Positions 1,130 through 13,009 of a stretch of 13,009 bases of DNA are shown piece after piece. Both the position numbers and the translations under genes were made by a program. How positions within the stretch are numbered: position 1 is the first letter of the stretch; each line of letters starts with the position of its first letter. A model generated the notes under the pieces. That model saw only the letters and a program-made list of their open reading frames with translations, had not been told where the DNA came from and ran no database searches. Origin of the DNA: Lachnoclostridium sp. UBA7482 (GTDB lineage: Bacteria; Bacillota; Clostridia; Lachnospirales; Lachnospiraceae); NCBI GenBank assembly GCA_002479645.1, contig DLOO01000072.1, forward strand, positions 10,872 through 23,880, given 5' to 3'.

Positions 1130-1417
1130 TCAGCGACGGGGACGTTTTCCCTGGGCTTCCCCCTGTATTAAAATATCCTGCAGCCGTTTCTTTTCCTGAT
1201 CGTTCATTGTTTCCTTCAGCAAGCGAATCATAAGCCGGGCTTCTTCCTTGGTAAATAAGAGATTTTCAGCCTGCATTTCCTGCTGGAAGCGAAGAAAAAC
1301 AGGCATAATCTTTTTCTGTGGAGTAGATTGAACCTTTTCTAAAAATTCGACCAGTTTAGCTTTCTTACGTGGGTCCATGCCGGAGAGTTCCTCCCGGCTC
1401 AGCCAGTCTGAATTCAT
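1130..1417 (-). CDS. Small charged helical protein of unknown function
   Basis: This 95-aa protein is not recognised. It is rich in Lys, Glu, Arg and Gln, with long stretches that should form amphipathic helices (about residues 15-52 and 56-87), and it ends in a basic tail (GKRPRR). It has no signal peptide, membrane segment or cysteine. The ATG at 1417 overlaps the TGA of the upstream gene in an ATGA arrangement, and a GGAGG lies 7 bases upstream of it inside the neighbour. This supports both the start and translational coupling. The two products are therefore probably made together and may form a complex. It converges on leuS across the terminator element. Confidence 0.75.
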   Translation of the reverse strand: MNSDWLSREELSGMDPRKKAKLVEFLEKVQSTPQKKIMPVFLRFQQEMQAENLLFTKEEARLMIRLLKETMNDQEKKRLQDILIQGEAQGKRPRR

Positions 1418-1821
1418 GAATCTTCCTCCAATATTCCTTTCATCATGTCCATAGTTTCCTGTTGCTCCGGTGAGAGCATCTGCATAAAGAAATCCATGGG
1501 ATTGCTTTCCTCCCCGTGTTCTTCCGCATTTTTTGCAAAGCTCTGATACATGGAGAACATCCGCATGGCATCCTGCATGGAATGAAATTGATTCATCATG
1601 CTTTGCTCCTGAGGGGACAGAAGCGGTGTAATCGCCTGAAACAGACTGTCAGTGTCGGTAACCAGGGCTTCTCCCGGAGGAATGTCCGCCGGACGGGAGC
1701 GGGCGGACTGCATGCATTGATTACATTCTGCAATGTTACAGAGAATAGTAAGCAGCGGCCGAAGGTTTGGATGCAGAAACGGAATGGCCGCATGCAGAAT
1801 CTTAATGTCTTTTGGGGACAT
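1414..1821 (-). CDS. Methionine-rich cytoplasmic protein of unknown function
   Basis: I do not recognise this protein. The frame is open from an ATG at 1878, but that codon has no ribosome binding site. The ATG at 1821 has GGAGG four bases upstream (minus strand GGAGGCGGCATG), so the 135-aa form beginning MSPKDIKILH is preferred. Thirteen of 135 residues are Met. Two similar segments occur: LSPQEQSMMNQ at residues 68-78 and LSPEQQETMDMMK at 117-129, suggesting an internal duplication. Three cysteines near residues 28, 33 and 36 (CNIAECNQC) could bind metal, but this is only a spacing observation. There is no signal peptide or membrane span. The gene overlaps the following 95-aa gene by 4 bases and lies 86 bases downstream of luxS without an evident terminator between. 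Confidence 0.75.
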   Translation of the reverse strand: MSPKDIKILHAAIPFLHPNLRPLLTILCNIAECNQCMQSARSRPADIPPGEALVTDTDSLFQAITPLLSPQEQSMMNQFHSMQDAMRMFSMYQSFAKNAEEHGEESNPMDFFMQMLSPEQQETMDMMKGILEEDS

Positions 1822-1847
1822 GCCGCCTCCATCTGCAGGGATAGGAC

Positions 1848-1853
1848 AGTATA
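1848..1853 (-). promoter_or_regulatory. Possible -10 element for the leftward hypothetical gene pair
   Basis: On the minus strand TATACT is found 26 bases before the preferred start at 1821. No convincing -35 stands 16-18 bases upstream. A small TGTCC/GGACA hairpin with a GAA loop (1854-1866) lies directly upstream of it. The pair may instead be read through from luxS, since no terminator with a U-tract is seen in 1822-1907. Confidence 0.3.
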
Positions 1854-1907
1854 TGTCCGAAGGACAGGAAAATTGCATGTCTTAGGAATAATTTGAAGGG
1901 GGATTGG

Positions 1908-2529: not shown

Positions 2530-3195
2530 TTGGCTGGAAGGAAAAAGTCAAAAGAGAATCAGGAAACCGCGAAGGAACGACTTCTGCTGGCCGCTGTAAA
2601 GCTCTTTGCCCTTAAAGGTTACGAAGGAACAACGACGCGGCAAATTGCAGCAGAAGCAGGCTCCAGTATTTCAATGCTTAACTTTTATTATGGAACAAAG
2701 GAAAAGCTGTATGAAGCGGCAATGGAACATATCATGGATGTGTGCATCAGGCAGAACATTTCTGTTTTTAAGGATATTATTGATTCTCGTCAAATGGAGT
2801 CAGACAATATCCAGCGAATATGGGAAATGATCGAAAAGCTGACGGATCTGCTGCTTAGGATCATCGGATCGACGGAATATCAATATGAAGTGCTTCTTTT
2901 GAATCGTGAATTACAGGATCGCCAACAATCTTTCCGGCAAATAGAACCAATTCTGATGTTTTTCTACAACTACGAATTGCTGTTTGAGGCATATACAAAG
3001 TCTCCGTCGAATACAGATTGGGCACAAGAGCTGAGTTTTGCAACGGTTACGGGTATATTATCCGAAATTAGTTACCCGAAGCTGTATGAACATTTTGTGT
3101 CAGCGGATAAATATACGGGTGAAAGGGAGCGTTTTGCTAAAGAATATCATCTGTGTGCAATTCACGAAACATTGATGCTTCATAAGAATATATAG
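2530..3195 (+). CDS. TetR/AcrR-family transcriptional regulator
   Basis: DNA-binding repressor-type protein of 221 aa, typical for the family. The N-terminal helix-turn-helix covers about residues 15-62: LLLAAVKLFALKGYEGTT, then TRQIAAEAGSSISMLNFYYG and the TKEKLYEAAMEHI capping helix, the standard TetR pattern. The rest (about 65-221) is the variable all-helical domain for ligand binding and dimerisation, so the inducer cannot be read from it. Translation starts at a TTG; the GGGGG run at 2517-2521 lies about 8 bases upstream, and no ATG in frame offers a better site. It has its own promoter and terminator. It sits directly upstream of the redox/export operon, whose start region carries a perfect palindrome, so local control of that operon is the likely job. 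The exact target is inference. Confidence 0.92.
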   Translation: MAGRKKSKENQETAKERLLLAAVKLFALKGYEGTTTRQIAAEAGSSISMLNFYYGTKEKLYEAAMEHIMDVCIRQNISVFKDIIDSRQMESDNIQRIWEMIEKLTDLLLRIIGSTEYQYEVLLLNRELQDRQQSFRQIEPILMFFYNYELLFEAYTKSPSNTDWAQELSFATVTGILSEISYPKLYEHFVSADKYTGERERFAKEYHLCAIHETLMLHKNI

Positions 3196-3258: not shown

Positions 3259-3287
3259 TTGACTTTTTTATAAATTCAGGGTATGAT
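3259..3287 (+). promoter_or_regulatory. Promoter of the redox/ABC exporter/peptidase operon
   Basis: TTGACT (3259-3264), a 17-base spacer and TATGAT (3282-3287) form a strong sigma-A-type promoter. The expected transcription start near 3294 falls inside the palindrome at 3286-3305, giving a leader of about 25 bases that ends in GGAGGT before the first ATG. Confidence 0.82.
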
Positions 3288-3305
3288 AGAATCAAATGAT
3301 TCTAT
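3286..3305. promoter_or_regulatory. Perfect 9-2-9 palindrome over the transcription start: probable operator
   Basis: ATAGAATCA (3286-3294) and TGATTCTAT (3297-3305) are exact inverted repeats around AA. The site overlaps the last bases of the -10 and the predicted start point, the classical place for a repressor to block RNA polymerase. Its length and symmetry fit a dimeric TetR-family protein, and such a gene is immediately upstream. Alternatively it could act as a small 5' UTR hairpin, but the two-base loop makes that less natural. Confidence 0.72.
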
Positions 3306-3318
3306 ATGGAGGTGAAGT

Positions 3319-5037
3319 ATGTTTGACGTGGCAATTATAGGCAGCGGTCCGGCGGGTATTTCGGCTGCGTTGACATTGCAGGCGAGGGGAAAAAACTTTG
3401 TCTGGTTTGGCAGCAAGCAATTTTCTCCTAAAGTTCGTGCGGCAGAAAAGATAAGAAATTATCCGGGACTAAGCAATGTGTCCGGCGAAGAATTGGAAAA
3501 GGCTTTCCGGCAACAGATAGATGCTATGGATATCAAAATCACAGAAAAAACTGTGACAGGTATCTATAGAGTGCGGGATCATTATTCCGTTCTCTGTGAT
3601 CAGGAAATTACAAATGCATATGCTGTGATCCTTACTACCGGAGTCACATCTGTAAAGCCAATTCCCGGTGAGCTGGAGTATGTGGGCAAGGGGGTTAGTT
3701 ATTGTGCGACCTGTGATGGTTTTCTTTATAAGGGCAAAACCATTGCTATTGTCTGCACTTCCAAGGATTTGGAACATGAAATTTCATTCTTGGCCGAACT
3801 CGCCGGTAAGGTCTATCTGATTCCGCTATATAAGGATGTGACTGTTTCCGGCGAAAACATTGAGATCATTCAGGAAATGCCGAAAGAAATCATGGGCGAA
3901 AAGAAGGCGGAAAGGCTATGCTTCGCAGAACACGAGGTTGCTGTAGATGGAATCTTCATGCTTAAAGATGCCGTTTCCCCCAGTGTACTCGTAAAGGGCA
4001 TCGCTGAGGAAGGGGGACACATTGCGGTGGACAGAAGGTGCGCCACCAATCTTCCCGGATGCTATGCCGCCGGCGATTGCACAGGTCGTCCTTATCAATA
4101 TGCAAAGGCAGCCGGTGAAGGCAATGTTGCGGCGCACTCGGCGCTGGATTATCTGGCACAGAATGGATATAAGACCGTAAAGGCATTCGGCAAGCCGCAA
4201 ACATTGGAAGAGCTGATCGATGCGATCGACCGTTCTCGTTTGCCGGATGATGCGCATATTGAGAAAATCATGCTTCGACGTTTGACCGAAGGAGCCTTTG
4301 ATTTGATTCCTTTGTCTGAGGGAGATAAGGCTGTAAACGGAGATGTAGTTACATTTTCTGTAACCGGCGGTGAAGGACGTTACGAGAAAGAAAATCTGCG
4401 TCTTACACTGGGTCAGGGAATCTATGACAGCACGATCGAAAATACTATGGTCGGGAAAACTGCCGGAGATGTTTTGAAGGTTACGGTTGGTAAACGGAAG
4501 CTTACCATTGTCATCCACGAAATTTGCAGAAAACAAATCCCCGTTATGACCGATGATATGGTCAAGGCGCAGCATATTGAAAATGTTACGAACCTGGAGC
4601 AGTTTCGTGAAGTGCTGAAAGAAGAAATGACCATGAACGAGATCTACACGATTACCGGTGAGATTATTCAAGAACTGATGGAAAACATTCCCGAACCGGA
4701 ATATGATGAAGAAACACTTGCGATTCTCGGACAGCTTGAAATTGGATTCTTTGATAAGCAATTCAAAGAAAACAAAGGTAAGACACTGGATGAGATGACA
4801 TCTGAGGAAATGAAAGAGGAGCTTGGCTGCTCCACAAAGGAAGAATTTACTTGTGGCAGACATGAATGGTATAAGATCAAGATTAAGCAGTGCTGCGCAC
4901 TGTCTCAGGCGCTGCACATTGAACTGAAAGATCAATATGATTTTAGATCCAATTATGAAGCCTTAGGACTTTTGCAGATGAAGGTTGTAGAGGTCATAAA
5001 AGCCGGATTGACAGGAGGCGAAAATTATGGTTCGTAA
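3319..5037 (+). CDS. Fusion: flavin thioredoxin-reductase-like domain plus trigger-factor-like chaperone domain
   Basis: A 572-aa cytoplasmic protein in two parts. Residues 1-285 resemble thioredoxin reductase: FAD motif GSGPAG (8-13), redox pair CATC (Cys129, Cys132) in SYCATCDGFLYKGK, and FAD motif GCYAAGDC (247-254). The NADPH-binding GxGxxA and HRR motifs are absent: VCTSKDLEHE (145-154) and PLYKD (169-173) stand in their places. This is reminiscent of ferredoxin-dependent flavin thioredoxin reductases of clostridia. Residues about 310-565 look like trigger factor without its ribosome-binding domain: GDVVTFSV and LGQGIYDSTIENTMVGKTAGD match the FKBP-like domain, and LEQFREVLKEEM to LLQMKVVEVI match the helical chaperone arms. 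The usual loop of the PPIase site is replaced by GKRK, so isomerase activity is doubtful. Extra cysteines lie at 403, 504, 512 and 525-526. A GGAGGT stands 5 bases before the ATG. It overlaps the thioredoxin gene by 11 bases, its probable electron acceptor. Confidence 0.88.
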   Translation: MFDVAIIGSGPAGISAALTLQARGKNFVWFGSKQFSPKVRAAEKIRNYPGLSNVSGEELEKAFRQQIDAMDIKITEKTVTGIYRVRDHYSVLCDQEITNAYAVILTTGVTSVKPIPGELEYVGKGVSYCATCDGFLYKGKTIAIVCTSKDLEHEISFLAELAGKVYLIPLYKDVTVSGENIEIIQEMPKEIMGEKKAERLCFAEHEVAVDGIFMLKDAVSPSVLVKGIAEEGGHIAVDRRCATNLPGCYAAGDCTGRPYQYAKAAGEGNVAAHSALDYLAQNGYKTVKAFGKPQTLEELIDAIDRSRLPDDAHIEKIMLRRLTEGAFDLIPLSEGDKAVNGDVVTFSVTGGEGRYEKENLRLTLGQGIYDSTIENTMVGKTAGDVLKVTVGKRKLTIVIHEICRKQIPVMTDDMVKAQHIENVTNLEQFREVLKEEMTMNEIYTITGEIIQELMENIPEPEYDEETLAILGQLEIGFFDKQFKENKGKTLDEMTSEEMKEELGCSTKEEFTCGRHEWYKIKIKQCCALSQALHIELKDQYDFRSNYEALGLLQMKVVEVIKAGLTGGENYGS

Positions 5038-5341
5038 GGTTGCGTTTAAGGACTTTGATAAAACAGTGAAGCATGGCGATTGGGTCATTGATTTTTATAC
5101 CGATCACTGCGGTCCATGCAAAATGCTGGATGTAGTTATAGATGAGGTGCTGCTTGATAATCCGATTGTGAATCTTGCAAAGTGCAATATTGAGGATGAC
5201 CCCGAATATGTACAGCGCTTTGAGGTGGACGGCACACCTACCGTTTTGTTTTACCATGAAGGAATAGAAAAGCAACGTTTTGTTGGTGCACAGGACAAGG
5301 AAACAATCGTGAAATGTCTGTCTGTATCTATGTACGATTAA
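5027..5341 (+). CDS. Thioredoxin (CGPC)
   Basis: Small thiol-disulfide oxidoreductase of 104 aa, the normal length for thioredoxin, cytoplasmic (no signal peptide). The active site is CGPC (Cys28, Cys31) in IDFYTDHCGPCKML. The buried Asp22 in VIDFY and the cis-proline Pro71 in GTPTV are kept. The Trp that usually precedes CGPC is His27 here, which may shift redox potential or partner choice. The start ATG has GGAGG nearby (acaGGAGGcgaaaattATG), and the gene begins 11 bases before the end of the upstream reductase fusion, so the two are translationally coupled. The natural reading is that the fusion reduces this thioredoxin, which then reduces substrates of the pathway. Confidence 0.95.
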   Translation: MVRKVAFKDFDKTVKHGDWVIDFYTDHCGPCKMLDVVIDEVLLDNPIVNLAKCNIEDDPEYVQRFEVDGTPTVLFYHEGIEKQRFVGAQDKETIVKCLSVSMYD

Positions 5342-5356
5342 AAGGGAGGGATGTTT

Positions 5357-7093
5357 GTGAACGAACAGTCCACTGCCAAAGAAGGTAAATGGAAATCGTT
5401 TTTCTGTTTGCTGGCACACGGTAAAATTGCATGGGGATTCGTTGCCATCGGATACATTATTTCCCTTGCGTCGGGGGCTATCGCTTTGCAGTTTTCCAAC
5501 AAAATGGGCGATTTGGTTGCGGGAGATTTCTCCATGGGAACACTGTACGGCTTTATCTGGATGACAGCCCTTTATGCACTGTTTAACGGCCTAAGCAATA
5601 TTGTCATGACGATTGCACAGACAAAGAGCGTAAAAAACCTGCGAACAGTCTTATGGAATAAGCTGATGCGCCTGCCGTCCTCTCATCCGATGTCAAGCAA
5701 ATCCTCTGAGATGCTTTCAACCATCACGGTGGACGCAACAACATCCATGACCTATGTTTTAATGTGCCTGGTAGGAATCCCGACAGCAATTTATTTTGTT
5801 GTGCTTGCAGCAATACAGGCGGCATCCATGTCTACCCGTTTTTTGATTCCGATCTTCTGTTTGGTGCCTGTATATGTGGTCTACGGTATCATCATAGGAA
5901 AGCTTAATCAGAAAACCAATGTGAAGGTGCAGACCAGCATTGGTATGCTGACGGGGTTTCTTTCGGAGCGGCTGCGTAATCTGGATTTGATTAAAGCCTA
6001 TAATAGTCAGTTGACAGAAGAAGAGGCCGGCACAGAGGCTGCCCGAAAACTGTATAAGCAGAATTGCTTTTTAACCACGATTAACACCGGCATTATTTTA
6101 TATACGCTGTTGTTTGATTCCGTTTGTGTGATTATGGCGGTTTTGTTCGGCTCTTCTATGATTAAGGCAGGAACATTGCGTCCGCAGGAATGGGCGAACT
6201 TCTTTATTCTTCTGCCTATGGTCAACAATATGCTGCGTAGTGCATCCGGGATGTGGGTAAATGCGAAAGGAGCCCTTGGATTTACAGCCCGAATTTCCGC
6301 TCTATTGGAGGCTCCGGAAGAAAAAACAGATGGCAAAGCAGTCGACAAGATCGGTAATATTGCCTTGTGTAATGTTAGCTTTTCCTACGGTGAAAAAAGG
6401 GTACTGGATCGCATCAGCTTTACCATTCCCATGGGAAAGCGAACAGCTATCGTGGGTTATTCCGGTTCCGGCAAGAGCACGCTCCTTAATTTGATCGAGC
6501 GGTTTTACACTCCGGACGAAGGTGTGATCACGCTTGCAGGTGAAAATATCGCAGAACTGGAGCTTTGTGACTACCGCAACAAGATCGCATATGTGCAGCA
6601 GGACACCGGTATGTTTTCCGGTACAGTCAGAGAGGCGCTGCTATATGGGATCACGGATGAAAAAAGCGACGATGAGCTGCTGGATGTGCTGAAAAAAGTA
6701 TCGCTTTATGAGGATGTTCAAAGACTTCCTGCCGGCTTAAACAGTAAGGTGGCATTGTGGGGCGCATCGCTCTCCGGCGGTCAGCGGCAAAAGCTGGTCA
6801 TTGCCCGTGAAATGCTTAAGCCAAGTCCGATTATCCTATTGGATGAGCCTACCAGTGCGCTGGATCTCACAGCACAAAGTACGGTTTTTGATGCGATCCT
6901 GCACTATTTTGACGGACGAACGATTGTAACGGTAACACACGATCTGAGATTGATCGCAGAGGCAGATCAAATTGTTGTGATCGACAATGGGATGGTTGTT
7001 GCACATGGCATACATACGGAGCTTCTGGATCGTTGTGAATTATATAAGAAGCTTGTTGAAGAAAAAGCCTTTGAGGAGGTGTACGGAGAATGA
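5357..7093 (+). CDS. ABC exporter half-transporter (membrane domain plus ATPase), first subunit
   Basis: Type IV (ABCB-like) exporter half with an N-terminal six-helix membrane domain and a C-terminal ATPase. Counting from the GTG at 5357 (578 aa), membrane spans are near residues 24-46, 63-84, 133-155, 162-181, 243-265 and 279-294. ATPase motifs are GYSGSGKST (367-375), YVQQD Q-loop, LSGGQRQ (472-478), IILLDEP Walker B with catalytic Glu497, and His528 in VTHDL. An in-frame ATG at 5351 also exists, but it abuts the GGGAGG; the GTG has proper 7-base spacing and is preferred. There is no C39 peptidase domain. It pairs with the next gene as a probable heterodimer. The cargo is unknown; in this setting thiols, cysteine or small peptides are candidates (CydDC-like role by analogy only). 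Confidence 0.93.
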   Translation: MNEQSTAKEGKWKSFFCLLAHGKIAWGFVAIGYIISLASGAIALQFSNKMGDLVAGDFSMGTLYGFIWMTALYALFNGLSNIVMTIAQTKSVKNLRTVLWNKLMRLPSSHPMSSKSSEMLSTITVDATTSMTYVLMCLVGIPTAIYFVVLAAIQAASMSTRFLIPIFCLVPVYVVYGIIIGKLNQKTNVKVQTSIGMLTGFLSERLRNLDLIKAYNSQLTEEEAGTEAARKLYKQNCFLTTINTGIILYTLLFDSVCVIMAVLFGSSMIKAGTLRPQEWANFFILLPMVNNMLRSASGMWVNAKGALGFTARISALLEAPEEKTDGKAVDKIGNIALCNVSFSYGEKRVLDRISFTIPMGKRTAIVGYSGSGKSTLLNLIERFYTPDEGVITLAGENIAELELCDYRNKIAYVQQDTGMFSGTVREALLYGITDEKSDDELLDVLKKVSLYEDVQRLPAGLNSKVALWGASLSGGQRQKLVIAREMLKPSPIILLDEPTSALDLTAQSTVFDAILHYFDGRTIVTVTHDLRLIAEADQIVVIDNGMVVAHGIHTELLDRCELYKKLVEEKAFEEVYGE

Positions 7094-8799: not shown

Positions 8800-8864
8800 A
8801 TATAAAAGTGAAGCTGCATTGATTAACCAGTGTGCAGTATAGATTACAGAAAGCGAGATATCAA

Positions 8865-11738
8865 ATGAATATCATAAAAAAATGTGATGGATTTTCAGAA
8901 TTGTCTGTTATGCTCCTGACACAGCTCGGTGCGCAGCTGCACTTTTATCGACACGATAAAACCGGAGCGGAATTGATCTGGCTGGAGCGTGCGTCAGAAA
9001 ACAAAACCTTTTCCATTGCCTTTCAAACCATACCGGAAGATGATACCGGCGTATTTCATATTCTGGAGCACTCTGTTCTTTGCGGCTCTGAAAAATACCC
9101 CGTGAAAGAGCCGTTTGTAGAACTGCTCAAAAGTTCTCTGCACACCTTTCTAAATGCCATGACATTCCCGGACAAGACAGTATATCCTGTATCCAGCCGC
9201 AACGATGCAGACTTTTTGAATTTGATGCGTGTCTATTTGGATGCGGTATTCCGTCCGAATATTTACAAAAATGCAAATATCTTTCGGCAGGAAGGCTGGC
9301 ATTACGAATTGGATGCAAACGGCACGCCGTCCTATGTAGGCGTGGTATTCGGTGAGATGAAGGGGGCATTTTCCTCTGTAGATGAAATTATCTATACGAA
9401 GCTCAATTCCATGCTTTTTCCTGAAAGCAGTTATCGGTTTTGCTCCGGCGGTGATCCTGAACATATCCCGGATCTGAGTTACGAGCAGTTCATTGAGGCG
9501 CATCGCCGATTCTATCATCCATCCAACGCAAAAATATTCTTGGACGGTACGCTTTCTATTGATGAGATTCTTGCTGATATTGATGCTGAGTATCTTTCAA
9601 AATATGAGCGAAGAGAGCCTGATTTTGCACTGACTTATCAGTCTGCAATTTCTGAATGCGCGGAAACGATAGAGTATGAACTATCGCCGGAGGAAACGGT
9701 TGAAAATAAGACGCATTTCGCAATGGCAAAGGTTATCGGAACATGGCAGGATATTGAAAAGTTGACAGCTATGCAGGTGCTGACTGACTATCTTGCCGGA
9801 TCGAACAGCTCACCGATTACCCGTGCTGTATTGGAACAGGGATTGGGGCAGGATTTCGGAATTGTCATTGATGATTCCATTGCACAGCCCTACATGATGC
9901 TACAGATTCGCAATTGTGCAGATAAAAAGCTTTCCGTAATGAAAGCGGAAATGCGAACAATATTCGATGGGGTATTAAATCAAGGGCTGGATCAGCAGGA
10001 GCTGGTTGCATCGCTTAACCGCCTGGAATTCCGGTCGAAAGAGCGCAAGGAACCTTTTGGCGTGGGATTAGCGCTTGCCTCCTATAAATCTTGGATATAT
10101 GGCGGAGATCCTTCTCTATATCTGGATATGAGTGAGGTCTTTGCATCGTTACGAAAAAAAATAGACAGTTCGTATTTTGAGGAGCTGCTAAAGCAAATGT
10201 TTTTAGACGATCAGGGCATGGCTGTTCTCACAGCGTCCCCGTCTCACACAATCGGAGAGGAAAAGCGTAGGGCTGAGACGGTACGGTTGGTTGCTGCAGC
10301 GGATGCATGGAGCGACGCAGAAAAAATCACTGTACGGGAGACGCAGAAAATGCTGTCTGTTTGGCAGCAGACGCAGGATACCGCTCAGTCTTTGGCGACC
10401 ATTCCCCATCTGGGCATATCTGATCTGTCATCGGAGCCGCTGTGGACAAATTGCGAGGAAGAAATGCGCGGCCATGTGCGTATTCTTCGTCCGAAGCTTT
10501 CCACGTCCGGTACGGTATATCTTAATCTGTATTTTGCGTTGCAGGAGGCAACTGTTGCAGAACTATCAGAGATGAGTTTGATGTGTGAGCTGCTGGGAAA
10601 CCTGCCGACCTCCGACCACACAAGAGAGAGACTTGCCCGCCAAATCAAAACGCATTTGGGAGAGCTTTCTTGCAAAATTGTGTCTATCGGAAAAACAAAT
10701 GATCCGAATCAGGCAGTGTGTTATTTGTGTGCAAGCTGTAGTGTGTTGGAAAGCAATGCAGATCATGCAGTCTCACTGATTCGTGAAATATTGTTGCAGA
10801 CGGAGTTTGATCATGAAAATATGGTTCGTGAGGTCATCGGGCAGTCATTTATCAATGCGCAGCAAAGTTTGATTATGTCCGGTCACCAATATGCCTTTCG
10901 CCATGTGCTCTCCTGTCAAACGGCTGAAGGCTTGGCAAATGAGGCAACCAGCTATTTCGGATATTATCAATATTTGAAAAACGCTTCGGCAAGCCTTGAT
11001 TTTGATAAACTTCTTGCCACCATTCGGAAGGTTATTGAGAATTTGACTTCTTTACCGCTGACAGTCGGCGTAACCGGGCAGTTAAGCGATGGCTCGCTGG
11101 ACAAGCTGTTATCAGGTTTCGGCGGAGTATCAAACCGTGCAACCATTCAATTGGAGCAGTCCGCAACGGTCAAGGATGCGATTGTCATTCCTGCCGGAAT
11201 TGCCTATGCAGTACAGGGCGGCAATCTCAAGCGTTTGGGCGGCGCATATCATGGCAGTTTTACGTTGGCGGCAAAAATAATATCGCTGAACTACCTCTGG
11301 AATGAAGTGCGTGTACAAGGCGGTGCTTACGGCTCCGGTATCAATGTCAACGCCAAAGGGGATGTGTTCTGTTATTCGTATCGTGATCCGAATCCGTCAA
11401 GAAGCATGGGAGTTTATCGCAGGGCTGCCGACTATTTGCACCGATTCTGTGAAAACAAGGAATCGTTTGCCGAACTGCTGATCGGCGCTGTGTCTGATGG
11501 AGAACCGCTGTTGTCAGTAGCGGATGAGAGTCGTGCCTCCGTTGAAAATGCTCTGCGTGGGGTCACTCTTGAAACTAAGCGGAAGGAGCGCAAAGAGCTT
11601 TTGAACGCCTCCTATGCGGATTTACTCAAATTTGCAGAACTCTTGCATTTGCTTTGTGAAAACGAATCCTCCTGTGTTGTCGGCAATGAACCGCTTCTTG
11701 ACAGCTGCGGGGAGGATGCCGAAATTCGACTTTTATAA
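8865..11738 (+). CDS. M16C-family zinc metallopeptidase (presequence-protease/insulinase type)
   Basis: Large cytoplasmic-type peptidase of 957 aa, the usual size for M16C proteins, which fold as a closed clamshell and cut unfolded peptides inside it. The inverted zinc motif HILEH (His65, Glu68, His69) sits in TGVFHILEHSVLCGSEKYPV. The downstream zinc-ligand Glu164 lies in VVFGEMKGAFSS. KEPFVELLKSSLHTFLNAMTFPDKT and YPVSSRN match the family's conserved block. No signal peptide is seen. The ATG at 8865 starts the family's usual N-terminus; a GTG at 8832 is also in frame, but neither has a strong ribosome binding site, so the start is uncertain. The 65-base gap after the ABC gene contains no terminator and an imperfect small CTGCA/TGCAG repeat. 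In the operon it may degrade a peptide related to the exporter's cargo. Confidence 0.93.
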   Translation: MNIIKKCDGFSELSVMLLTQLGAQLHFYRHDKTGAELIWLERASENKTFSIAFQTIPEDDTGVFHILEHSVLCGSEKYPVKEPFVELLKSSLHTFLNAMTFPDKTVYPVSSRNDADFLNLMRVYLDAVFRPNIYKNANIFRQEGWHYELDANGTPSYVGVVFGEMKGAFSSVDEIIYTKLNSMLFPESSYRFCSGGDPEHIPDLSYEQFIEAHRRFYHPSNAKIFLDGTLSIDEILADIDAEYLSKYERREPDFALTYQSAISECAETIEYELSPEETVENKTHFAMAKVIGTWQDIEKLTAMQVLTDYLAGSNSSPITRAVLEQGLGQDFGIVIDDSIAQPYMMLQIRNCADKKLSVMKAEMRTIFDGVLNQGLDQQELVASLNRLEFRSKERKEPFGVGLALASYKSWIYGGDPSLYLDMSEVFASLRKKIDSSYFEELLKQMFLDDQGMAVLTASPSHTIGEEKRRAETVRLVAAADAWSDAEKITVRETQKMLSVWQQTQDTAQSLATIPHLGISDLSSEPLWTNCEEEMRGHVRILRPKLSTSGTVYLNLYFALQEATVAELSEMSLMCELLGNLPTSDHTRERLARQIKTHLGELSCKIVSIGKTNDPNQAVCYLCASCSVLESNADHAVSLIREILLQTEFDHENMVREVIGQSFINAQQSLIMSGHQYAFRHVLSCQTAEGLANEATSYFGYYQYLKNASASLDFDKLLATIRKVIENLTSLPLTVGVTGQLSDGSLDKLLSGFGGVSNRATIQLEQSATVKDAIVIPAGIAYAVQGGNLKRLGGAYHGSFTLAAKIISLNYLWNEVRVQGGAYGSGINVNAKGDVFCYSYRDPNPSRSMGVYRRAADYLHRFCENKESFAELLIGAVSDGEPLLSVADESRASVENALRGVTLETKRKERKELLNASYADLLKFAELLHLLCENESSCVVGNEPLLDSCGEDAEIRLL

Positions 11739-11749
11739 GGAGTAATCGT

Positions 11750-13009
11750 ATGTTGGATGAAATGACAAGAAAAAGGTATTATGATGTCCTGAGCGAAGAG
11801 CTTGTCCCTGCTATGGGATGTACCGAACCGATATCGCTGGCTTATGCTGCGGCGGTTGCCCGCAAAACGCTGGGAGTCCTGCCGAAATTGGCGGAAATCA
11901 CGGTAAGCGGCAATATTATCAAAAATGTGAAAAGCGTAATTGTTCCCCATACAGGGGGAATGCATGGCATAGAAACAGCAGTTGCCATCGGATTTATCGG
12001 CGGAAATGCGGACAAAGAACTGGAAGTATTATCTGACATCAGCGAGGAACACATCCAAGAGCTGACAGAGTATTTGCAGAATGCGGTCCTGCATGTTCAT
12101 CAGTCTGAATCAGGCAGGATTTTTGAGATTGTGATAAAAGCAAGTGCAGATGGACAGATAGCCGAAGTGACCTTGCAGGACGGACATACCAATATCACAT
12201 GCATTGAAAAAAACGGAGAGGTTATTTTCTGTGCGGATCGTACTCCTGACAGTATAAAGAAAACGGATCATAGTTTTTTGACGGTAGAAGGAATCGTGGA
12301 ATATACGCAGAATGTTCCCCTTGACGATGTGAAGCAGCTCCTTGACCGACAGATCGAATTTAATACTGCCATTGCAAAAGAGGGATTGTCCGGTAGCTGG
12401 GGGGCTTCCATAGGAAAAATTTTGCTCAAAACCAACGGCAACAGTGTATCCAACCGTGCTAAAGCGTGGGCTGCAGCAGGATCGGATGCCAGGATGAATG
12501 GTTGCGAGCTTCCGGTAGTAATCAACTCAGGCAGCGGTAATCAGGGAATGACAGCTTCGCTCCCGATCATTGTATATGCCGAAGAATTGAATGTATCCAA
12601 AGAACAGCTCTACCGTGCTTTATTGATTTCCAATTTGGTAACCATTCATCTTAAGAGCGGTATTGGATGTCTTTCTGCCTATTGCGGGGCTATCAGTGCC
12701 GGATGCGGAGCCGGTGCGGGTATTGCATATCTGTATGGCGGCGGTTACACGGAAATTGCTCACACCATCGTCAATGCGGTAGCAATCAATTCCGGTGTGA
12801 TTTGTGACGGCGCTAAGGCATCCTGCGCCGCCAAAATCGCTTCTGCGGTTGAGGCCGGTATTTTAGGTATGAATATGTATATGCACGGCAGCGAATTTCA
12901 CGGCGGTGATGGACTTATTGTAAAAGGTGTGGAAAATACCCTGCAAAATATCGGCCGTCTCGCAAGGCAGGGAATGGCTGATACCGATAAGTCCAGCGGT
13001 GATATGTCA
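11750..13009 (+). CDS. L-cysteine desulfidase-like protein (UPF0597/CyuA type), 3' end cut by window
   Basis: Family members break down L-cysteine to pyruvate, ammonia and sulfide using an oxygen-sensitive Fe-S cluster; they share the serine dehydratase alpha-chain fold. The frame runs open to the window end: 420 codons, close to full length for the family, so only a few residues are likely missing. Motifs are PAMGCTEPISLAYA (Cys24), SGSGNQGMTASLP (260-272), and the cysteine-rich IGCLSAYCGAISAGCGAGAG with Cys307, Cys312 and Cys319, plus Cys352 and Cys359 in SGVICDGAKASCAAK. These are plausible cluster ligands. AAGGAG lies 7 bases upstream of the ATG, 11 bases after the peptidase stop, so it is in the same operon. 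It could remove excess cysteine released by peptide breakdown. A serine-deaminating relative cannot be excluded. Confidence 0.92.
   Translation, partial: MLDEMTRKRYYDVLSEELVPAMGCTEPISLAYAAAVARKTLGVLPKLAEITVSGNIIKNVKSVIVPHTGGMHGIETAVAIGFIGGNADKELEVLSDISEEHIQELTEYLQNAVLHVHQSESGRIFEIVIKASADGQIAEVTLQDGHTNITCIEKNGEVIFCADRTPDSIKKTDHSFLTVEGIVEYTQNVPLDDVKQLLDRQIEFNTAIAKEGLSGSWGASIGKILLKTNGNSVSNRAKAWAAAGSDARMNGCELPVVINSGSGNQGMTASLPIIVYAEELNVSKEQLYRALLISNLVTIHLKSGIGCLSAYCGAISAGCGAGAGIAYLYGGGYTEIAHTIVNAVAINSGVICDGAKASCAAKIASAVEAGILGMNMYMHGSEFHGGDGLIVKGVENTLQNIGRLARQGMADTDKSSGDMS

What the first reader, a model, noticed from the sequence alone, without database searches (positions are those of the whole stretch)
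3319..5037. Thioredoxin-reductase-like domain fused to a trigger-factor-like chaperone domain
Seen: one uninterrupted 572-codon frame with FAD motifs and CATC in the first half. The second half contains GDVVTFSV, LGQGIYDSTIENTMVGKTAGD and LEQFREVLKEEM, in the order found in trigger factor (FKBP-like domain, then helical arms). Known: trigger factor normally starts with a ribosome-binding domain; here that domain is replaced by the flavoenzyme. Inference: a chaperone holds an unfolded client next to a disulfide-reducing centre. I do not know a described protein of this make-up.
Basis: partly seen in the sequence, partly recalled or inferred. Interest (0 to 1): 0.78.

Follow-up and report, generated by a model that had tools for sequence, protein, structure and literature searches.

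The report
Thioredoxin reductase fused to chaperone domain
One bacterial protein joins an enzyme that undoes disulfide bonds to a chaperone-like domain, and related bacteria keep the chaperone-like gene next to a thioredoxin and membrane exporters, which points to an undescribed transport system with its own folding and redox helpers.

Summary
The 572-codon gene encodes a flavin thioredoxin reductase joined to a trigger-factor-type FKBP domain plus helical arms. Two corrections. By sequence the reductase is of the ferredoxin-dependent kind (FFTR): best PDB match 6gnc, NADPH motifs absent. The chaperone half belongs to a distinct, mostly unnamed family (here TFL), unfused in 17 of 18 loci studied.

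The larger finding is a cassette. In 18 TFL loci from 15 genomes, thioredoxin lies within 1.5 kb in 18 and an ABC exporter in 17; in 19 other loci hit by trigger-factor or TFL profiles both counts are 0. The window has FFTR-TFL, thioredoxin, two ABC exporters and a PreP-type peptidase. FFTR occurs fused before TFL, fused after it, or as a neighbour; trees fit at least three fusions. Five other cassettes carry a 66-residue FTR-beta-like protein.

Best reading: a ferredoxin-powered thioredoxin/chaperone module serving an ABC exporter, probably keeping polypeptide cargo unfolded and reduced. Parts and linkage are shown; cargo, direction and all activities are inferred. Eight paper searches found no description.

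The parts
3319..5037 (+). FFTR-TFL fusion gene, 572 aa
   Evidence: 23 same-order homologues listed
3319..4158 (+). FFTR-type flavin thioredoxin reductase domain, about residues 1-280; CATC at nt 3703-3714; no NADPH motifs
4183..5034 (+). TFL (trigger-factor-like) half, residues 289-572
4291..4542 (+). FKBP-like subdomain of TFL, about residues 325-408
4594..5013 (+). helical arm region of TFL, about residues 426-565
   Evidence: secondary structure of the model; within the ranges aligned to 1w26_A and 3gty_X
3259..3287 (+). sigma-70-like promoter TTGACT-17-TATGAT
   Evidence: consensus match only; the region has 11 such sites against 6.5 expected
3289..3302 (.). perfect palindrome GAATCAAATGATTC just after the -10; possible operator of the upstream TetR (inferred)
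   Evidence: the only exact match in the window
2530..3195 (+). TetR-family regulator
5027..5341 (+). thioredoxin, 104 aa, CGPC; its start overlaps the end of the fusion gene by 11 bases
5351..7093 (+). ABC exporter subunit 1, 580 aa
7090..8799 (+). ABC exporter subunit 2, 569 aa; overlaps subunit 1 by 4 bases
8832..11738 (+). M16C PreP-type metallopeptidase, 968 aa; found in the fetched stretch of 8 of 18 cassettes
11750..13009 (+). SDH_alpha protein (UPF0597/cysteine-desulfidase type by recall), cut by the window end; found in the fetched stretch of 5 of 18 cassettes

Best explanation
The gene makes the redox-chaperone component of an ABC-exporter cassette. Electrons pass from reduced ferredoxin to FAD, to the CATC disulfide and on to the thioredoxin encoded by the next gene (inferred from FFTR homology and gene order). 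The TFL half binds a polypeptide in a non-native state, as trigger factor does (inferred from fold), and thioredoxin keeps its cysteines reduced so that the ABC pair can move it across the membrane (inferred from linkage). The peptidase would clear failed or imported peptides (inferred). Shown: domain make-up, the FFTR type by sequence, the conserved cassette, fusion in both orders, and an alternative FTR-beta-like protein in other cassettes. Not shown: any activity, the cargo, and the direction of transport.
For: Domains. Cassette: thioredoxin in 18 of 18 and ABC in 17 of 18 TFL loci against 0 and 0 of 19 other loci hit by trigger-factor or TFL profiles, within 1.5 kb; the ABC miss, L120, has only 619 bases before TFL on its contig. 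Three arrangements: FFTR-TFL, TFL-FFTR (13 listed proteins of 586-626 aa), and separate genes nearby (L017; L154). FFTR and TFL trees fit at least three fusions. Reductase: of 15 cassette genomes, 7 have an FFTR-type gene, 6 an FTR-beta-like gene, 11 at least one. The FTR-beta-like gene is in or at the end of the cassette in 5 of those 6, and at 16 loci in genomes without a TFL hit a thioredoxin gene is nearby in 11.
Confidence: 0.5

Rival explanations
1. One reading: TFL holds an unfolded client directly against the CATC of the fused reductase, which reduces it without thioredoxin.
For: Fusion in both orders; chaperone-type fold.
Against: A thioredoxin gene is within 1.5 kb in 18 of 18 loci, while FFTR is fused or that near in only 3 of 18. 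Known FFTRs pass electrons to thioredoxin (PMC12796991, abstract and passages).
Confidence: 0.12
2. TFL is an adaptor, not a chaperone: it docks thioredoxin and its reductase onto the ABC exporter to keep transporter or regulator thiols reduced.
For: TFL follows trigger factor only weakly in sequence and tracks thioredoxin and ABC genes.
Against: Both the FKBP-like and arm regions are kept in the model; the number of cysteines in the ABC ORFs listed varies from 2 to 10.
Confidence: 0.2
3. The ABC pair exports a small thiol, as CydDC does, and the module supplies reducing power; TFL helps to assemble the transporter.
For: ABC1 matches CydD at E 5.5e-71 and CydC at 4.4e-67; an SDH_alpha protein, possibly a cysteine desulfidase (recall), lies downstream.
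Against: Scores are well below the curated cut-offs (240 against 435 and 227 against 329 bits), and other exporters match better. A chaperone-type domain and the M16 and M18 peptidases suggest peptides.
Confidence: 0.13
4. The fusion is an assembly or sequencing artefact of two separate genes.
For: Relatives exist with separate genes; a 277-aa gene call of the second half alone, 100% identical, is in the database (P0122).
Against: 23 same-order homologues at 35-90% identity and 13 reverse-order ones; no stop or frameshift. P0122 starts at an internal TTG of the same frame.
Confidence: 0.01

Closest known systems
Clostridial FFTR (6gnc, 6gna, 6gnd; Clostridium acetobutylicum)
   Same: FAD plus CxxC two-domain fold, 45% identity over 276 aligned residues; no NADPH motifs
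   Different: The solved chains end at about residue 285; here a TFL half is attached
Trigger factor (TIGR00115; 1w26, 3gty)
   Same: FKBP-like domain followed by helical arms
   Different: No ribosome-binding domain, 37 bits against a cut-off of 180.2, separate clade from the genome's own trigger factor and its two paralogues
Trigger-factor paralogues without a ribosome-binding motif in multi-copy genomes (PMC11559001, passages)
   Same: Extra trigger-factor-type proteins, many in Clostridia
   Different: The word thioredoxin does not occur in its main text
Clostridial multi-thioredoxin systems (PMC10880999, passages)
   Same: Thioredoxin paired with FFTR in operons; chimeric TrxA-TrxB proteins noted
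   Different: Trigger factor and chaperone do not occur in its main text
CydDC thiol exporter
   Same: Heterodimeric ABC exporter, redox context
   Different: Curated cut-offs not reached
Bacteriocin exporters with a thioredoxin-like accessory protein (PedC/BrcD; recalled)
   Same: Thioredoxin fold beside an ABC exporter; here LytTR or GHKL regulators lie near 9 of 18 loci
   Different: No bacteriocin gene found; the window's thioredoxin best matches ordinary thioredoxin models

Membership tests
FFTR | Sequence closest to solved FFTR among thioredoxin reductases | tested here: met
   6gnc 278.7 bits, best other chain (4zn0) 119.6 bits
FFTR | Fold closer to FFTR than to NADPH-type reductases | tested here: inconclusive
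FFTR | No NADPH-binding motifs | tested here: met
   Neither the pattern G[GA]G[DN][ST]A nor HRR in 6 of 6 fusions checked
FFTR | Takes electrons from ferredoxin and reduces thioredoxin | not testable with these tools
   needs biochemistry
Trigger factor | N-terminal ribosome-binding domain with GFRxGxxP | tested here: not met
   The N-terminus is FFTR and GxRxG is absent from the window's protein; of the 6 fusions scanned only P0032 shows GxRxG, as GMRAG at residue 97
Trigger factor | FKBP-like domain and helical arms | tested here: met
Trigger factor | Score over the TIGR00115 cut-off | tested here: not met
   37.1 against 180.2 bits. Of 8 stand-alone TFLs, 7 gave 26.3 to 59.9 bits and L148 only matched NF045969 (26.2 against 140); of two other fusions P0028 matched only NF045969 (31.1 bits) and P0025 neither among the 25 rows shown
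CydDC | Score over TIGR02857 or TIGR02868 cut-offs | tested here: not met
   ABC1 240.1 and 226.9, ABC2 200.7 and 175.7, cut-offs 435 and 329.05
FTR-beta (the 66-aa cassette protein) | PF02943 match | tested here: inconclusive
   Over the cut-off in 1 of 4 (24.1 against 22), below it in 2 (20.1 and 15.7), absent in 1. Six invariant Cys as CPC, CxC and CHC, with spacing unlike the classical one (recalled). No solved FTR matched

The most novel reading that the evidence does not exclude
A new kind of membrane transport system, probably of Clostridia: a heterodimeric ABC exporter with its own trigger-factor-derived holdase and its own ferredoxin-powered thioredoxin line, so that cargo is kept unfolded and disulfide-free using low-potential electrons rather than NADPH. 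Selection for close coupling joined chaperone and reductase at least three times and in both orders, and two unrelated ferredoxin-type thioredoxin reductases fill the same slot.
Probability: 0.35. Interest if true: 0.87.

Novelty: new variant of a known kind. Interest (0 to 1): 0.72.

Why it matters
It gives a context to a mostly unnamed trigger-factor-derived family and to the extra thioredoxin systems of Clostridia, whose role was called unexplored (PMC10880999, passage). If right, ferredoxin would power the redox side of a dedicated export pathway in anaerobes. It is testable with a handful of genes.

Tried and rejected
Pfam gives no trigger-factor model for the fusion or for the 5 TFLs tested; FKBP_C appears once, under its cut-off (L155, E 0.057). 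NCBIfam, profiles and fold show the kinship. The fold search with the whole model (pLDDT 84.9, pTM 0.48) listed only reductase-type flavoproteins, one domain filling the list, so the second half was modelled alone. A profile search of PDB sequences gave only weak trigger-factor hits (E 0.052 and 0.42). A nine-row TFL profile later reached full-length proteins with PF00254, PF05697 and PF05698 at E 3.6e-12 and weaker.

Small-ORF comparison for a cargo peptide gave none (22-110 aa, ribosome-site-like start, outside long frames; L188 and L189 not included). A 910-residue frame around an FTR-beta-like sequence (L190) looks like a read-through of a non-coding frame, not a fusion. P0240 joins a TFL end to a thioredoxin start but is a 201-aa fragment; not counted as a fusion. 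A sample of the class of G715 (Coriobacteriia by the title of L057; 149 genomes) and of the phylum (243) gave no cassette outside this genome, only 6 and 2 weak hits. Enrichment of FTR-beta-like genes in TFL genomes was not shown: 2 of 10 cassette genomes in the family sample of 299, against 16 of the other 289.

Rows left out: L124 (G688:C8), a 151-aa frame with a TFL remnant beside an ABC remnant and no thioredoxin hit, is taken as a decayed locus and is not among the 18. The 18 loci score E 3e-33 or better with the A5 profile; the two contexts fetched for weaker hits (L157, L158) score 1e-18 and 3e-12 (L189 and L188 are the wider L125 and L123). Five of the 12 rows of A5 are cassette TFLs, the window included. 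One search used 40 of the 80 loci. The FFTR tree left out seven same-order proteins, its 37 unfused rows were picked by hand, and the intended NADPH-type outgroup did not enter it. The TFL tree used 12 of 24 same-order and 10 of 13 reverse-order proteins and all cassette loci but L150.

Papers: eight searches found no description of the fusion or cassette in titles and abstract starts listed. PMC10880999, PMC11559001 and PMC12796991 were seen as passages from word searches; the rest as search listings. Subscription papers are mostly not held.

Full report
OBSERVATION. The window has one open frame at 3319-5037 on the + strand, 572 residues. All quoted motifs are there: the FAD motif at residues 8-13, CATC at 129-132, and the three second-half motifs in order. 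A promoter-like site (3259-3287) is followed by a perfect 14-base palindrome (3289-3302), downstream of a TetR gene; the promoter scan finds 11 sites against 6.5 expected, so it is weak evidence, and that TetR binds there is inference. Downstream genes are packed: thioredoxin overlaps the fusion's end by 11 bases, the ABC genes overlap each other by 4, and the peptidase and SDH_alpha genes follow after 32 and 11 bases, so one operon is likely.

HOMOLOGUES. Of 2141 hits, 120 were listed; 23 cover 93-100% of the query in the same order. Thirteen more listed proteins of 586-626 aa have the reductase second; five were read in full, and the reductase start was located at about residue 305-342 in 12 of the 13, the pattern missing in P0040. 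The two kinds of chaperone half are homologous (hhalign probability 99.2). In a family sample of 299 genomes no other full-length match was listed. The FFTR tree (71 rows) puts 16 of 17 same-order rows, with 13 unfused ones, in one part, and the remaining same-order row, P0025, with the reverse-order group and the cassette FFTR of L017. The TFL tree (47 rows) puts P0025 with the unfused L120 and L121, these three beside the window clade, and the reverse-order group with L017 and stand-alone proteins. That fits at least three fusions (window clade, P0025, reverse order); losses of fusion or swaps of one half are not excluded.

CASSETTE. TFL genes were sought with profiles: 15 of 299 family genomes matched at E <= 1e-10, of which 10 carry the cassette and 5 are weaker hits; 5 of 245 genomes of the order of G606, of which 3 carry it; 2 of 391 class genomes at E <= 1e-12; 2 of 40 genomes behind loci. 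In 18 loci from 15 genomes, thioredoxin lies within 1.5 kb in 18, an ABC exporter in 17, FFTR (fused or near) in 3 and the FTR-beta-like gene in 4; a fifth, L155, has it further along the cassette. In 19 control loci (the genome's trigger factor, its paralogues and weaker profile hits) thioredoxin and ABC are both 0. Two ABC genes are present in 16 of 18; L017 shows one, and L120 none, its contig starting 619 bases before TFL; in L150 and L188 one ABC gene is split over two frames. The M16 peptidase is in the fetched stretch of 8 of 18 and SDH_alpha in 5 of 18, several stretches being cut by contig ends. LytTR or GHKL signalling genes were confirmed in 9 of 18; not all neighbours were tested. 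An M18 aminopeptidase lies in L148, L149 and L150. Putative lipoproteins of shared ancestry sit in L146, L151, L154, L155 and L156. The window itself shows neither lipoprotein nor LytTR gene but TetR.

REDUCTASE LINK. Of 15 cassette genomes, 7 have an FFTR-type gene at 48% identity or more, the window's own included, and 6 have the 66-aa protein with CPC, CxC and CHC; 11 have one or both and 4 neither. The 66-aa protein matches PF02943 over the cut-off in 1 of 4 tested. At 16 loci of family genomes without a TFL hit it has a thioredoxin gene nearby in 11, which supports a role as thioredoxin partner. It is not shown to be enriched in TFL genomes (2 of 10 against 16 of 289).

MECHANISM. Best supported: ferredoxin to FFTR to thioredoxin, with TFL holding a substrate and the ABC pair moving it. 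The substrate class (polypeptide) is inferred from the TFL fold and the peptidases. The direction is inferred from the ABC family; the nearest solved structures are mainly P-glycoprotein-type and BmrA-type exporters, with peptide exporters further down, which does not discriminate. Fusion would place TFL and its client close to the source of reduced thioredoxin.

NOVELTY. The parts are known or derived from known families. Neither the fusion nor the cassette appears in the papers found (PMC10880999 and PMC11559001 by word search). Most of the stand-alone TFL rows listed carry no name; the few names are trigger factor, hypothetical protein, and once an antitoxin component. I rate it a new variant of a known kind, with a bolder reading left open.

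Noticed in passing
L004:1366-2535, L005:1153-2307 (own genome): Two trigger-factor paralogues without the ribosome-binding domain that begin like lipoproteins, so probably extracytoplasmic.
   Followed up: partly
L151:7199-7396, L119:4546-4743, L153:9959-10156, L155:15723-15920; L172-L187: A 66-aa CPC/CxC/CHC protein, FTR-beta-like, often near thioredoxin in family genomes (18 of 299 have it) and mostly in genomes without a TFL hit.
   Followed up: partly
L146:9570-10088, L151:7431-8054, L154:8069-8710, L155:10019-11466, L156:9950-10645: A shared family of putative lipoproteins after the cassette thioredoxin, without a Pfam match over a cut-off in those tested; role unknown.
   Followed up: partly
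L124: Probably a decayed cassette: ABC end and TFL end close together, near sequences that by eye resemble a response regulator and a histidine kinase.
   Followed up: partly
P0065: FFTR with a GatC-like tail (PF02686), 382 aa; another unusual fusion.
   Followed up: no
P0026: Membrane-transporter-like N-terminus (by eye) joined to an FFTR, 479 aa.
   Followed up: no
window 1130-1878, - strand: Two overlapping small ORFs (95 and 154 aa) with no Pfam match over a cut-off.
   Followed up: no
cassette thioredoxins: Active sites vary: CGPC, CVPC, CIPC and CGAC, so redox potentials may differ between cassettes.
   Followed up: no
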